From contig NZ_VIRV01000002.1 in NCBI RefSeq assembly GCF_019754295.1, positions 62,001-126,000 of the forward strand: DNA of 64,000 nucleotides, in the 5' to 3' direction. Position numbers and translations under genes: made by a program. Positions 677 to 6,061 of this stretch are shown piece by piece (within the stretch, counting starts at the first letter, position 1; each line of letters opens with the position of its first letter). This stretch comes from Sellimonas caecigallum (lineage in GTDB: Bacteria; Bacillota; Clostridia; Lachnospirales; Lachnospiraceae). The notes under the pieces were generated by a model that searched no databases, had not been told where the DNA came from, and saw only the letters and a list, made by a program, of their open reading frames with translations.

Positions 677-1612
677 TCAAATAAAATTTCCAAGCGCATG
701 AATCAACATTGCACAAAAAACAGTCAAATCTATCATACAAATGGCCCCATAACTGTTCCATGGCACATATCCCCCGTTTCTCGCTGCCTGCCTCTGAGGT
801 TTTATTCCCAGAAGTAGCGGATAAAGAAGAGGGATGAAATATCTTCCCTGGATTCCTTCTATCCATCTTTGTCCGACCGGAGTCCACTGCCCGTACAGCG
901 TCACAAAGATCAAGAAGAAAATAAAGACAGATGTCCCGACCATCAATGCCCGAATCGGACGTTTAAATGAATATCCTTCCGTATCATTGTCGAGGAATAC
1001 ATCCGCTGCCAGAATAAATGCAAACGGAAATACAATGAACGGCGGAATCTGAATCGTAAGCCATCCCATCTGATCCCCCAGCATCTGCATGAAATAATCC
1101 ATCCATGCGATCTCCAGCGTCCGGAAAAATGTGGCACAAAATCGAAGTGGATGAATCAGGATATATTTGAGCTGCTCTGCCGTGTCCACATTGACATCTG
1201 CTTTTATCCCGCCAAGAAAAGACGATGCGATGGCAAGCCAGCCAAATGTCAATATAACGATCGCACATCCTGCGATCACAACATGCAGAAAGAATGATTT
1301 CCTGCTCTTAAATCGTTCGATCGGAATCGCAAACAACAGCAGACAGAATGGCACGTATACAATCTTACAACAACACAGAAAGACAATCAGTGTATACAGT
1401 ACTGCAATTTCTTTTTTTCCAATCACACCTTTTTTCTTATACCTCAAAAACAAAATATATGACGTAAAAAGAAGTACGACTGCCAGCGCCAGTCCATCGG
1501 CTGAAAGGGAGTTTGCAGCCTGAAGGCTCATCGGCAGAAGGGCAATCATCGCAATGAGATTTTTTCCAAAAGGCGCCAGTATGATGGCCAAAACGTGTCC
1601 AGGTTCGGCTCC
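677..1612 (-). pseudogene. DUF2142 membrane protein, C-terminal fragment
   Basis: About 305-315 residues remain of a DUF2142-type polytopic membrane protein, a family usually near 450 residues and found in surface-polysaccharide clusters. Hydrophobic helices run through the whole fragment, and the family motifs APFGKNLIAMIALLPMSLQ and QGRYFIPLLYP are present. The N-terminal helices are missing. The open frame reaches back only to about 1639, where an in-frame stop occurs, and the only initiator at the start of the homologous part is a TTG at 1591 without a ribosome site. The left side of this gene abuts, head to head, an agrC kinase fragment that has also lost its N-terminus, so a deletion or rearrangement has joined two unrelated genes near 1590-1612. 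An assembly error would look the same. Confidence 0.7.
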
Positions 1613-1956
1613 CGGAGGGAATCCTCCACACTTTTGATATCAATAGTGTGGTAGCCAACCTTTTACAAAATGCCATCGAAGCTTCCTCACAGTCCGCGGA
1701 AAAATATCTCTCCCTTTCCTTGTCCCTCAGCAAAGGCGTCTTAAAACTCCGAATAAGGAACAGTTTTTCGGAAGAGGCAAAGCCATCCCGCTCCCGTCTC
1801 TTCTCTGCTAAAAAGCAAGATACTCTGCACGGCTTCGGTCTTCGCAGCGTCCGCCATATCGTAGAAAAATATGATGGAGTTTTAGAACTGAATAAACAAG
1901 GGAATATGTTTGAAGCCACTGCCATCCTTTATCTTCCGGATGAGGCGGATAATTAA
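1585..1956 (+). pseudogene. AgrC-type histidine kinase, C-terminal GHKL fragment
   Basis: The frame opens after a TGA at 1582-1584 and encodes only the ATP-binding half of a GHKL sensor kinase. Visible features are an N-box (NLLQNAIEAS) and a G-box (GFGLRSVRHIVEKYDG) followed by the terminal strand typical of AgrC proteins. The transmembrane sensor and the phospho-acceptor histidine region, normally about 300 residues, are absent. No ribosome site precedes the possible GTG at 1648. It lies just upstream of agrD and agrB, where agrC is often found, so I infer a once complete agr module whose receptor has been destroyed by the junction with the DUF2142 gene. If it is expressed at all it could not sense a peptide. 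Confidence 0.75.
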
Positions 1957-2098: not shown

Positions 2099-2254
2099 AT
2101 GCAAAAGAAAGCTTGCGCTATTGCTGCTATACTGAAAAAAATGATTATCAAAACTGCCGTTTTCATGGCAATTCTGGATGCGAATCAGGCCTGTGGATTT
2201 TGGGGGTATCAGGAGTCGGAACCGAAATCGGTAAAAAAGCTCCGTAAATTCTAA
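2099..2254 (+). CDS. agrD: AgrD-like cyclic peptide pheromone precursor (51 aa)
   Basis: This 51-codon gene has an AGAGAGG ribosome site eight bases upstream of ATG 2099. The product has the three parts of AgrD precursors: a basic, amphipathic N-terminal leader (about residues 1-27), a short signal segment around Cys32 (ANQACGFWGYQ), and an acidic then basic tail ending PKSVKKLRKF, which matches the clostridial AgrD C-terminal style. In the family AgrB cuts after the signal segment and closes a thiolactone between the Cys and the new C-terminus. The ring here probably runs from Cys32 to Gly36 or Tyr37, but I cannot decide which. agrB starts eight bases after the stop, without a good ribosome site of its own, so the two are probably translationally coupled. 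Confidence 0.85.
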   Translation: MQKKACAIAAILKKMIIKTAVFMAILDANQACGFWGYQESEPKSVKKLRKF

Positions 2255-2262
2255 GCGCCGCC

Positions 2263-2814
2263 ATGAAACTTTCAGAAAGACTTGCAAAAGATGGACTCAT
2301 ATCCTCCGAGGAATTGCCTGTCGTTGCATATGGACTTCGAAGTCTGCGGGATAATGTGCTGAGTTTTATCATTACCGTCGGAATCGGCTTTGTTTTTCAA
2401 GATATTGTTTCCGCTATTCTCTTTTTCTTTTTTTGTTTTCCGCTTCGAAGGAGTGCCGGCGGATATCACGCACAGACACGTGTCAGGTGTCTTCTTTTTT
2501 CTACCGGTCTCCTTCTTTCCATGTGGACTTCCTGGGAGTATATGAGGATATTTCAAAGCTGCCGTTTGGTAGCTTCTATTTTCAGCACGGCCATCCTTTT
2601 TATCCTTGTCCCAGCAGAAACACATAACAAAAAGCTGGATCCTGCCGAGCGTGCCGTTTACGGCAGACGCGCCCGCCGGATCGCATTTCTGGAGCTTTTT
2701 TTGTGTTTTATTTCTTTTCATATGAAATGGAACCTGCTTTTTAAAAGCACTGCCCTCAGTTTATATACCTCTTCCATCGCTGTGCTGGCAGGAAAGTGGG
2801 TAATGCGGAAATAA
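2263..2814 (+). CDS. agrB: AgrB peptidase / pheromone-processing membrane protein
   Basis: The 183-residue length and hydrophobic helices fit the AgrB family of integral membrane cysteine endopeptidases, which process and export AgrD. The active-site region is visible as LRRSAGGYHAQTRVRC, with His69 and Cys76. The seven-residue spacing equals that of the catalytic His77/Cys84 pair known in Staphylococcus aureus AgrB. The start is ATG 2263, eight bases after agrD. No ribosome site precedes it, so expression probably depends on translation of agrD. The gene appears intact, although the adjacent agrC is a remnant and no agrA response regulator is in the window. The peptide may therefore be made without a local receptor, or be sensed by a kinase elsewhere. 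Confidence 0.9.
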   Translation: MKLSERLAKDGLISSEELPVVAYGLRSLRDNVLSFIITVGIGFVFQDIVSAILFFFFCFPLRRSAGGYHAQTRVRCLLFSTGLLLSMWTSWEYMRIFQSCRLVASIFSTAILFILVPAETHNKKLDPAERAVYGRRARRIAFLELFLCFISFHMKWNLLFKSTALSLYTSSIAVLAGKWVMRK

Positions 2815-2845
2815 ATATTTTTCCTCCATTTGGTTGCTAAAAATG

Positions 2846-2893
2846 CCCGATCTGATTTTTATTAGTCAGATAGAAGAATCAGATTCGATCGGG
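2846..2893 (+). promoter_or_regulatory. Leader hairpin ahead of holin-like gene
   Basis: Two complementary segments, 2846-2857 and 2877-2893, form two short stems (CCCGATC with GATCGGG, and CTGATT with AATCAG) separated by a bulge. The right arm ends directly against the ribosome site GGAGGAGG (about 2892-2899) of the holin-like gene, so folding could limit its translation. No poly-T tract follows, so it is not a terminator. This is inferred from sequence complementarity only. Confidence 0.4.
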
Positions 2894-2908
2894 AGGAGGC
2901 CGAAGAGT

Positions 2909-3139
2909 ATGGAACAAACAATCGTGGACGTTGCTTTATCACAGGGAATCTGGGCTGTAGTCGCAATATTCCTGCTGCTCTACATCGTAAAGTCAAATGA
3001 AAAAAGAGATGCAAATTACCAGCTGTTGCTGACAGATCTGATGGATAAATTCTCTATTTTGCACGAGATCAAAACGGATGTTGAGAATATCCAGGATATC
3101 CTTGATAAAAATCTGGAAAGCCCTGAGAAAAAAACATAA
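2909..3139 (+). CDS. BhlA/UviB-type holin-like small membrane protein (76 aa)
   Basis: ATG 2909 sits ten bases after a strong GGAGGAGG ribosome site; the longer frame upstream runs through the leader hairpin and is not credible. The product has a short N-terminus (MEQTIVDVALSQG), one hydrophobic helix (about residues 12-27, IWAVVAIFLLLYIV), a KSNEKRD segment, then a charged amphipathic helix. This is the architecture of the BhlA/UviB family, named from Bacillus and Clostridium bacteriocin or phage loci and thought to act like holins. It lies 94 bases downstream of agrB and ends at a terminator, so it could belong to the agr transcript. Whether it lyses cells, exports something or signals is unknown. 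Confidence 0.75.
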   Translation: MEQTIVDVALSQGIWAVVAIFLLLYIVKSNEKRDANYQLLLTDLMDKFSILHEIKTDVENIQDILDKNLESPEKKT

Positions 3140-3152
3140 TACACCCCGAAAA

Positions 3153-3206
3153 CGGTGCTGCTGCGAGAGTCTTAAATCAGACTCCAAAGCAGCACCGCTG
3201 TTTTTA
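3153..3206 (+). terminator. Rho-independent terminator after holin-like gene
   Basis: A perfect 10-base stem (CGGTGCTGCT at 3153-3162 with AGCAGCACCG at 3188-3197) contains a second nested 6-base stem (GAGTCT/AGACTC) and is followed by TGTTTTTA. It lies 14 bases after the holin-like stop and closes the agrD-agrB-holin unit. Confidence 0.85.
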
Positions 3207-3228: not shown

Positions 3229-3285
3229 TTGACACTTCCATTGGAACTGTATATAATCATACTGTCCGAAAACATACAGTATGAT
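3229..3285 (+). promoter_or_regulatory. Sigma-A promoter with palindromic MarR operator
   Basis: A consensus -35 TTGACA (3229-3234) and -10 TATAAT (3252-3257) are separated by exactly 17 bases. A perfect inverted repeat, ATCATACTGT (3256-3265) and ACAGTATGAT (3276-3285) with a 10-base spacer, overlaps the last bases of the -10 element and the transcription start. This is the expected placement for a repressor site and predicts that the following MarR protein represses its own promoter. Confidence 0.85.
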
Positions 3286-3310
3286 TTGAGACAAAGTGGA
3301 GGTGGTATAT

Positions 3311-3889: not shown

Positions 3890-4348
3890 ATGAAACTGAT
3901 TTTAAGGTTTATAAAACCGTACTGGAAACTATTTACACTAACATGCATCCTGATTATCGTAGATGTGGCTGGGGCTTTATATATCCCCACATTAATTGCA
4001 CAAATGATGAATGAGGGAACCGCCCAAAGTACACTGCAGGATCTTTATATGACAGGGATTCAGATCGTGATCGCATCGGTCATATCCGGAGCAGGCGCGA
4101 TCCTTGGGGCATGGTCATGCTCTCAGCTCTCCTCCAGAGTATGTAAGGACATCCGGGATGCTCTTTACAAAAAATCTCTGAAACTATCTATCCTATGATT
4201 TTAAACAGTTCGGTACAGCGTCCATTACCACAAGAACGACCGCGGATATCACGAATATTCAGACCGCGCTGATCAGCTTTATACAGATGGTACTTCCTGT
4301 TCCGGCGATATTTATCATTGCCCTGATTCTTACATTTCATCTGGATAC
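3890..4348 (+). pseudogene. ABC exporter, first subunit (frameshifted and 3'-truncated)
   Basis: ATG 3890 follows a good AGGAGG site and starts a type-1 exporter membrane domain (MKLILRFIKPYWKLF, then hydrophobic helices). After about 100 residues the frame hits TGA at 4196-4198. One extra base near 4185-4190 explains this, because the +1 frame continues as family-like sequence (SYDFKQFGTASITTRTTADITNIQ, then FIIALILTF). Homology ends at about 4348, where the sequence passes directly into the N-terminus of the second ABC protein. The rest of the membrane domain and the whole ATP-binding domain are gone. It should encode no functional protein. An unrelated sequencing error could explain the frameshift but not the truncation. 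Confidence 0.8.
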
Positions 4349-6061
4349 GTGGGCCGGCTTTCCATTATCGGACTGTCTATCATCTTATATACGGCGCTTA
4401 CTATTTACACACCTTTTAAAAGCGCGGAAGTTATCGATGCCATCTGGCAAAGCATCCAGTCTTCCAGAGAGCAAGGCACAGCCTTTGTCCTCACATGGGA
4501 TGGACTGGGGAAGGATATCCTGTCTCTGACTACCCTGTATTTTTTTACATGGCTCTTCTATTATCTGCAGTCATTTTTGATGGCAAACGTGGCAGACATG
4601 CTTGTATTGAATCTAAGACAGCAGATTGCAGCAAAATTAAACGTCCTTCCTTTGAAGTTTTTTGACCAGAACAAATCCGGCGAAATTTTAAGCCGTTTGA
4701 CCAACGACCTTGACAAGATTACAGAGACATTACAGACGGGTCTTTTGAAACTCATCGTTGCCGTGGGAACCATCATCGGTTCAATAGCGGTCATGATCTA
4801 TTACAACGTATTTCTCACTGTCATATTTCTGATTTTCATGGCGATCAGTATGCTGATCACACGCGCAGTCGCCGGAAAAAACCTGAAGTATGCCGCTCTT
4901 CGCCAGGATTCCATCGGGGAACTGACGGGGATAGTGGAGGAATACTACACCGGAAGAAATATTATCAAAGCATATAACCGCGAACAGGAAAGCATTGCAA
5001 AGGTTCGCAAAAGCACAGAAGAAAACCGTCTGGCATCTCAGAAAGCCGACTTTATGACAAACAGTGTAAATCCTCTGATCCGTCTGGTCACAAGACTCGG
5101 TCAGGCAGGAATCGCCGTGATCGCAGGGGCAGCCATGCTCAAAGGAACAATGACTATCGGTGTGGTACAGGCATTTTTCCAGTATGTCAATCAGGCGGCT
5201 GAGCCTCTGACCCAGGCGTCCTTTATGATCAATACGCTGCAGTCCGCGCTGGCATCTGCAGAGCGTACATTTGAACTCCTTGACGATACAGAGGAAGTTC
5301 CGGATACAAAGACACCTGTTGTCCTGGAACACGCAAAAGGGACCATCTCCTTTGAGCATGTAAGCTTTGGCTATGATCCGTCAAAAATGCTGATGAAAGA
5401 TATCAGCTTTACAGCAAAGCCTGGACAGAAGATCGCCGTGGTCGGAAGCACCGGAGCAGGAAAGACAACACTGATCAATCTGCTGATGCGATTTTATGAA
5501 GTAAACGGCGGACAGATTCTTGTGGACGGCATACCGTCTGTGAATCTGACAAGAGAGGGGCTGAGGCAGAATTTCGGTATGGTCCTCCAGGATACGTGGT
5601 TATTCGGCGGGACGATCGCAGAAAACATTGCCTACGGAAAACCGGATGCCACACGGGAAGAAATCATCGCGGCTGCCAAAGCTGCCAAAGTAGATTATTT
5701 CATCCGGACCATGCCGCAAGGTTATGACACTATGCTGGACAATGAAGGCTCCAATCTATCCGTAGGACAGAGGCAGCTTTTGACAATTGCCAGAGTATTC
5801 CTGTGCAACCCACCTATTCTGATCCTTGATGAGGCGACGTCAAGCGTGGATACGCGTACGGAGACAGAAATCAACAAAGCCATGCAGAAACTGATGAAAG
5901 GCAGAACAAGTTTCGTGATCGCGCACCGCCTGTCCACCATACGGGATGCCGATATCATCCTCTTTATGGAGAACGGTAATATCATCGAGCAGGGAAACCA
6001 TGCGGAACTTCTGGCAAAGAAAGGGGCTTATGCAGCACTTTATTACAGCCAGTTTGCATAA
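4349..6061 (+). CDS. ABC exporter, second subunit (native start lost)
   Basis: This encodes nearly all of a fused membrane/ATPase half-transporter of the LmrA/MsbA/MdlB type. The helices begin at once (GRLSIIGLSIILYTALTIY), coupling and substrate regions follow, and the ATPase domain has Walker A GSTGAGKTT, a Q-loop in FGMVLQDTWLFGG, signature LSVGQRQ, Walker B ILILDEATSS and H-loop IAHRLSTI. The likely initiator is missing: the frame is open from 4205, and the first available start (GTG 4349) lies at the deletion junction with the first subunit and has no ribosome site. Such proteins normally work as heterodimers with the neighbouring subunit, which is destroyed, so activity is doubtful although the body is intact. 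Confidence 0.75.
   Translation: MGRLSIIGLSIILYTALTIYTPFKSAEVIDAIWQSIQSSREQGTAFVLTWDGLGKDILSLTTLYFFTWLFYYLQSFLMANVADMLVLNLRQQIAAKLNVLPLKFFDQNKSGEILSRLTNDLDKITETLQTGLLKLIVAVGTIIGSIAVMIYYNVFLTVIFLIFMAISMLITRAVAGKNLKYAALRQDSIGELTGIVEEYYTGRNIIKAYNREQESIAKVRKSTEENRLASQKADFMTNSVNPLIRLVTRLGQAGIAVIAGAAMLKGTMTIGVVQAFFQYVNQAAEPLTQASFMINTLQSALASAERTFELLDDTEEVPDTKTPVVLEHAKGTISFEHVSFGYDPSKMLMKDISFTAKPGQKIAVVGSTGAGKTTLINLLMRFYEVNGGQILVDGIPSVNLTREGLRQNFGMVLQDTWLFGGTIAENIAYGKPDATREEIIAAAKAAKVDYFIRTMPQGYDTMLDNEGSNLSVGQRQLLTIARVFLCNPPILILDEATSSVDTRTETEINKAMQKLMKGRTSFVIAHRLSTIRDADIILFMENGNIIEQGNHAELLAKKGAYAALYYSQFA

What the first reader, a model, noticed from the sequence alone, without database searches (positions are those of the whole stretch)
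2099..3139. Receptor-less agrD-agrB unit linked to a holin-like UviB/BhlA gene
A 51-codon agrD with a complete leader/Cys/tail architecture sits eight bases before an intact agrB with His69/Cys76, and both are followed by a UviB/BhlA-type gene before one terminator. The adjacent agrC is only a C-terminal fragment and no agrA is present. A pheromone maker wired to a small membrane-active protein without a local receptor is unusual. It could be a signal-only or bacteriocin-like system, or a decaying agr locus. The predicted ring segment around CGFWGY is a specific, testable peptide.
Basis: partly seen in the sequence, partly recalled or inferred. Interest (0 to 1): 0.7.

Follow-up and report, generated by a model that had tools for sequence, protein, structure and literature searches.

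The report
Truncated agr signal locus with holin
A gut-type bacterium carries a quorum-sensing gene set that still has the parts to make its peptide signal but has lost its receptor genes to a deletion, and it sits next to a small membrane-disrupting (holin-like) gene that we find beside the same kind of signalling genes in a few other bacteria too.

Summary
In detail: an intact agrD (2099-2254), agrB (2263-2814, His69/Cys76) and a BhlA/UviB-family gene (2909-3139) precede one strong terminator (3148-3205). They are preceded by only the ATPase end of an agrC. The genome has no other agrB. Relatives show the standard order agrA-agrC-agrD-agrB. In this window one junction (about 1588/1594) fuses the 5'-truncated agrC head-to-head with a 5'-truncated DUF2142 gene, so "receptor-less" is best read as a 5' deletion of an ordinary agrACDB locus, not a designed signal-only unit. 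Seven of about 43 sampled agrB loci also lack a local agrC. AgrD itself is not decayed: its tail (VKKLRKF) matches intact relatives. Alignment puts the predicted five-residue ring at Cys32-Gly36 (CGFWG), not CGFWGY. The novel part is the bhlA link: in four other genomes (three lineages) bhlA lies beside agrB inside loci that also hold agrA and agrC. Elsewhere bhlA often sits with a sigma factor and a cell-wall hydrolase. This suggests an agr-controlled holin-like output, which here has lost its local controller. Function is inferred, and an assembly artefact at the junction cannot be fully excluded.

The parts
677..1591 (-). 5'-truncated DUF2142 membrane-protein gene, one side of the deletion junction
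   Evidence: PF09913 E=3.5e-37 but only profile positions 142-392 of 395, the N-terminal third missing; no other DUF2142 in the genome or in two congeners
1588..1597 (.). junction joining truncated DUF2142 and truncated agrC head to head, with no spacer
   Evidence: DUF2142 homology ends at about 1588; agrC homology starts at about 1591-1597 (tblastn)
1594..1956 (+). agrC remnant: ATP-binding (HATPase_c_5) domain only, no sensor, no H-box, no plausible start codon
   Evidence: PF14501 E=7.6e-20; aligns only to the last ~115 residues of AgrCs of relatives
2099..2254 (+). agrD, signal-peptide precursor, predicted ring CGFWG (Cys32-Gly36), conserved tail YQESEPKSVKKLRKF
   Evidence: TIGR04223 E=1.9e-8; alignment with 14 AgrDs
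2263..2814 (+). agrB, membrane endopeptidase that cyclises and trims AgrD
   Evidence: PF04647 E=4e-30; His69/Cys76
2846..2893 (+). hairpin in the agrB-bhlA gap, just before the bhlA ribosome-binding site; no run of T, function unknown
   Evidence: RNA fold z=-2.2 for 2815-2908
2909..3139 (+). bhlA/uviB-family small holin-like gene, 76 aa, apparent single N-terminal membrane helix and charged C-terminal part (by eye)
   Evidence: PF10960 E=8.7e-18; PHROG 2429 'bacteriocin production or immunity' E=3.7e-11
3148..3205 (+). intrinsic terminator closing the unit
   Evidence: hairpin -29.5 kcal/mol, z=-6.8, followed by T-rich tail

Best explanation
This is an ordinary clostridial (probably Lachnospiraceae-type) agr locus, agrA-agrC-agrD-agrB, that has lost agrA and the first two thirds of agrC to a deletion reaching into a neighbouring DUF2142 gene, and that carries an accessory bhlA gene downstream of agrB. 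Shown: intact agrD, agrB and bhlA on one strand without a terminator in the gap before bhlA, one strong terminator after bhlA, an agrC remnant, and relatives with the complete order. Inferred: AgrB still cuts and cyclises AgrD to a Cys32-Gly36 thiolactone (core CGFWG). agrD, agrB and bhlA are one transcript. In intact versions the peptide-AgrC-AgrA circuit turns on the locus, with the BhlA protein as a density-dependent output that permeabilises the membrane or helps release a cargo. In this strain the local feedback is gone, so any expression is basal or under another regulator, and the signal has no dedicated local receptor.
For: Domain calls. Relatives with agrC directly before agrD-agrB, and agrA before agrC in L043, L044, L174 and L178. 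The window's AgrD tail VKKLRKF is shared with AgrDs of G083, G089 and G100, which lie after an agrC. The agrC remnant aligns only to the C-terminus of those AgrCs and starts at the junction, where DUF2142 is also truncated. The genome's three LytTR regulators are elsewhere, and none sits beside a stray agrC 5' part, which argues against a simple misjoin. bhlA adjoins agrB inside loci that include agrA and agrC: G155 (bhlA-agrB-agrA-agrC plus an AgrD-like ORF), G802 and G831 (bhlA-agrB-agrD divergent from agrA-agrC), G504 (agrB-bhlA flanked by agrC and agrA). About 0.1-0.3 such pairs are expected by chance among about 56 bhlA loci; P for three lineages is 0.0001-0.004.
Against: No close relative of this locus is held: the best AgrBs are about 31% identical and the two congeners have none. 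So the deletion is inferred from distant relatives, selection cannot be measured, and an ancestral state without agrCA cannot be excluded. The junction could be an assembly error, since no reads are available. Co-transcription and function are not tested. The window's BhlA is closer to a BhlA that lies next to a sigma-factor-like gene (G226) and to one in G831 than to that of G155, so the agr links may have arisen separately.
Confidence: 0.72

Rival explanations
1. Signal-only unit with a receptor in trans. AgrBD makes a peptide sensed by a distant kinase, such as the AgrC/AgrA-like pair on contig C14, comparable to VirS-VirR in C. perfringens. The agrC piece is then an irrelevant scar.
For: The genome has an intact AgrC-like kinase (442 aa) overlapping a LytTR regulator with no agrBD beside it. 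Solo agrBD with remote or unknown receptors is established in C. difficile and C. perfringens (PMC10602386). AgrD and AgrB show no sign of decay.
Against: The C14 kinase has orthologues in both congeners (46% and 43% identity), which lack any agrB match, so it is a genus gene that persists without this signal. In C. difficile the AgrC-like RgaS was tested and does not sense AgrD1 (PMC10602386).
Confidence: 0.17
2. Chimeric assembly. The true genome has a complete agrACDB locus and a complete DUF2142 gene, and the assembler joined two places at about 1590.
For: The junction is abrupt and leaves both genes without their 5' ends; the assembly has 53 contigs.
Against: The assembly is rated 99.74% complete and 0.04% contaminated. 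No agrA in an agr context, no second DUF2142 and no LytTR gene beside an unpaired agrC 5' part were found on other contigs, which a simple misjoin would leave behind. The junction lies well inside a 210-kb contig.
Confidence: 0.1
3. Bacteriocin-like unit. AgrD is matured by AgrB into an antimicrobial cyclic peptide and the BhlA protein helps release it or is the toxic part.
For: BhlA-family proteins are linked to bacteriocin release (UviB) and are bactericidal when overproduced (PMC9527704). The PHROG match is labelled bacteriocin production or immunity.
Against: The AgrD belongs to the signal-peptide family by model and by its tail. The same AgrD type sits with AgrC/AgrA in relatives. No immunity or dedicated export gene is part of the unit, and no endolysin-like partner was found in the window or the neighbouring 10 kb by similarity to four known partners.
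Confidence: 0.05
4. The agrB-bhlA neighbourhood is accidental, with bhlA as an unrelated prophage remnant.
For: BhlA proteins occur in phages, and most bhlA loci in the sample are not near agr.
Against: Adjacent pairs recur in three lineages beyond the window, more than expected by chance. No relative of this bhlA or agrB was found in 2.9 million viral contigs at this sensitivity.
Confidence: 0.2

Closest known systems
agr quorum-sensing loci of Clostridia with order agrA-agrC-agrD-agrB (L043, L044, L174, L178)
   Same: agrD-agrB order, AgrD tail and ring layout, AgrB family, agrC directly upstream of agrD
   Different: window lacks agrA and most of agrC, and has bhlA after agrB
C. difficile agr1 (agrB1D1), a receptor-less agrBD operon (PMC10602386)
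   Same: signal-making genes without local agrC or agrA
   Different: agr1 is conserved across the species without a receptor; the window has an agrC remnant and a bhlA gene
uviA-uviB modules (sigma factor + BhlA-family holin + endolysin; PMC9527704)
   Same: same BhlA/UviB protein family
   Different: no sigma factor and no endolysin beside it; agr genes take their place
C. acetobutylicum agr with the adjacent effector CA_C0082 (PMC10301443)
   Same: an accessory gene beside agr; there it is shown to be an output of the agr system
   Different: effector is LanM-like, not holin-like; agrCA is intact there

Membership tests
agr quorum-sensing system | AgrB endopeptidase with catalytic His and Cys | tested here: met
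   PF04647 E=4e-30, His69/Cys76
agr quorum-sensing system | AgrD with leader, Cys ring and conserved tail | tested here: met
   TIGR04223 E=1.9e-8; alignment
agr quorum-sensing system | AgrC receptor kinase with membrane sensor | tested here: not met
   only the C-terminal ATPase domain is left
agr quorum-sensing system | AgrA (LytTR) regulator in the locus | tested here: not met
   three LytTR genes in the genome, none here
agr quorum-sensing system | secreted thiolactone peptide | not testable with these tools
   needs mass spectrometry
BhlA/UviB holin-like family | match over the whole family profile | tested here: met
   PF10960 64.5 bits, cut-off 22.6, profile 1-69/70
BhlA/UviB holin-like family | membrane permeabilisation | not testable with these tools
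   needs expression assay
uviA-uviB bacteriocin-release module | adjacent sigma factor and endolysin | tested here: not met
   the only regulator nearby is a MarR-type gene with its own promoter; no similarity to known endolysin partners in the window or the flanking 10 kb
C. difficile agr1-type receptor-less agrBD | agrB and agrD without agrC/agrA as a stable, conserved state | tested here: inconclusive
   absence of an intact agrC shown, but no close relatives are held to test conservation

The most novel reading that the evidence does not exclude
Small BhlA-family holin-like proteins are a recurrent output gene of agr quorum sensing in several clostridial lineages, taking the place of the UviA sigma-factor switch, so that cell density directly triggers membrane permeabilisation or holin-mediated release. 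The window is a version freed from its receptor.
Probability: 0.3. Interest if true: 0.6.

Novelty: new variant of a known kind. Interest (0 to 1): 0.4.

Why it matters
If agr loci repeatedly recruit a BhlA-type holin, quorum sensing in gut clostridia would have a direct lysis or release output, testable in strains with complete loci such as G155 or G831. The window itself shows how a complete signalling locus can turn into a signal-producing unit without its own receptor by one deletion.

Tried and rejected
AgrB searches in viral contigs and BhlA searches in viral contigs gave nothing. Plasmid BhlA hits opened in three records showed no agrB; two had a sigma factor or a peptidoglycan-hydrolase-like gene near bhlA. 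The Paraclostridium plasmid AgrB hit H1 and the other Paraclostridium plasmid hits were left unopened. The genus-wide DNA search matched only ABC-transporter stretches, so no congener held here has this locus. The AgrB tree is poorly resolved; its pairing of the window with a G004 AgrB that also lacks a directly adjacent agrC is flagged as a meeting of long branches and was not used as evidence. The promoter scan found only a weak candidate before agrD and none before bhlA; matches were no more than chance expects. The upstream regions of agrD in relatives were compared by eye with no clear shared AgrA site. Literature searches found no paper describing bhlA/uviB linked to agrB; the library holds open-licence papers only. 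No structure prediction was run: the families are clear by sequence.

Full report
What is there. Three intact genes lie on the + strand: agrD (2099-2254), agrB (2263-2814) and a BhlA/UviB-family gene (2909-3139). The domain matches are far above chance (AgrD model 1.9e-8; AgrB 4e-30 and Holin_BhlA 8.7e-18). The agrD stop is 8 bases before agrB, and AgrB has His69 and Cys76 in the expected GGYH...C spacing. A strong terminator follows bhlA at 3148-3205 (z=-6.8). The next gene, a MarR-type regulator, has its own perfect promoter and an inverted repeat, so it is a separate unit. No promoter-like site or terminator was found in the 94-base gap between agrB and bhlA. The gap holds a hairpin of modest significance (z=-2.2). 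A shared transcript is therefore the simplest reading, but it is inferred.

The missing receptor. The open frame before agrD covers only the ATP-binding domain of an AgrC (PF14501 7.6e-20) and aligns to the last ~115 residues of AgrCs of relatives. Its homology starts at about 1591-1597. The - strand gene on the other side, a DUF2142 membrane protein, lacks its first ~140 profile positions and its homology stops at about 1588. Two truncated 5' ends thus meet within a few bases, which is what a single deletion leaves. In relatives with agrD before agrB the arrangement is agrA-agrC-agrD-agrB (L043, L044, L174, L178) or agrC-agrD-agrB within the stretch seen. The window lacks exactly the upstream part. 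The genome has one agrB and three LytTR regulators, none stranded beside an agrC piece, and no second DUF2142. A simple misjoin would leave such pieces, so a real deletion is favoured, but without reads this is not settled.

Is a missing receptor unusual? Not very. By my count, 7 of about 43 agrB loci in related genomes have no agrC beside agrB or within a few kb (L165, L167-L171, L182; L165 has a divergent agrA-agrC pair about 4 kb away). C. difficile agrB1D1 is a published case (PMC10602386). The genome does hold an intact AgrC-like kinase with a LytTR regulator on contig C14. Its orthologues occur in both congeners, which lack agrB, so it is a poor candidate for a dedicated receptor.

The peptide. 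Aligned with 14 AgrDs, the window shows Cys + 4 residues, then [HY]Q, then a tail that in three relatives reads VKKLRKF as it does here. The expected ring is therefore Cys32-Gly36, CGFWG, with Tyr37 as first residue of the cleaved tail. The basic tail is a family feature, not decay.

The holin-like gene. In 145 relatives, bhlA over the family cut-off was found in 7 genomes, and only in the window's genome did it lie beside an agrB found in the same set. With a wider sample, 42 genomes besides the window's have bhlA. In four of them bhlA adjoins agrB: G155 of the same family (bhlA-agrB-agrA-agrC plus an AgrD-like frame), and G504, G802 and G831 of another family (one genus), all with agrA and agrC in the locus. 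Counting G802 and G831, whose loci are near-identical, as one, these are three lineages. About 0.1-0.3 such pairs are expected by chance; with three lineages P is 0.0001-0.004 under rough assumptions of 1.5 to 5 agrB per genome; counting the shared genus as one case as well, P is 0.004-0.04. Many other bhlA loci have a sigma-factor-like gene and a cell-wall hydrolase (GH25, CHAP, peptidoglycan-binding) nearby, like the published uviA-uviB-endolysin sets (PMC9527704). So two kinds of switch seem to be paired with the same small membrane protein. The gene orders differ between the agr-linked cases and the window's BhlA is not closest to that of G155, so recruitment may have happened more than once. 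No paper found describes this link, within an open-licence library.

How it probably works. In complete loci the peptide would activate AgrC and AgrA, which would drive the locus including bhlA, giving a density-dependent membrane effect or release function (inference, supported only by gene neighbourhood). In this strain the local circuit is cut. agrD, agrB and bhlA remain open, with expression unknown. An agr-adjacent effector controlled by agr is known in C. acetobutylicum (CA_C0082, PMC10301443), which makes the output idea plausible.

Limits. The nearest AgrB is about 31% identical, so there is no test of selection and no direct view of the ancestor. Function, transcript and peptide are untested.

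Noticed in passing
window 3890-4376: The first ABC-transporter gene after marR appears broken: it matches only the first third of the ABC membrane domain, shifts frame near 4195 and runs into the second ABC gene, which looks like a second deletion or frameshift scar close to the agr junction.
   Followed up: partly
window 3229-3293: A perfect sigma-70 promoter (TTGACA-17-TATAAT) overlaps and is followed by an 18-base inverted repeat before the MarR-type gene, a likely self-operator.
   Followed up: no
L041 3034-5087 (own genome, contig C14): An AgrC-like kinase overlaps a LytTR regulator with no agrBD beside it; orthologues of the kinase occur in both congeners, which lack agrB: a genus-wide receptor pair of unknown signal.
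   Followed up: partly
L165, L166, L167, L168 (genome G004): One genome carries five agrB matches, at least two without agrC within several kb, and one of these AgrBs groups with the window's (long branches).
   Followed up: partly
L111, L112 and L113 (genome G504): A genome with six bhlA matches, several with internal stops, one of them within an agr locus: repeated gain and decay of bhlA.
   Followed up: no
L140 6269-7587 (genome G831): A second bhlA in G831 is divergent from an agrA-like gene without agrB beside it.
   Followed up: no
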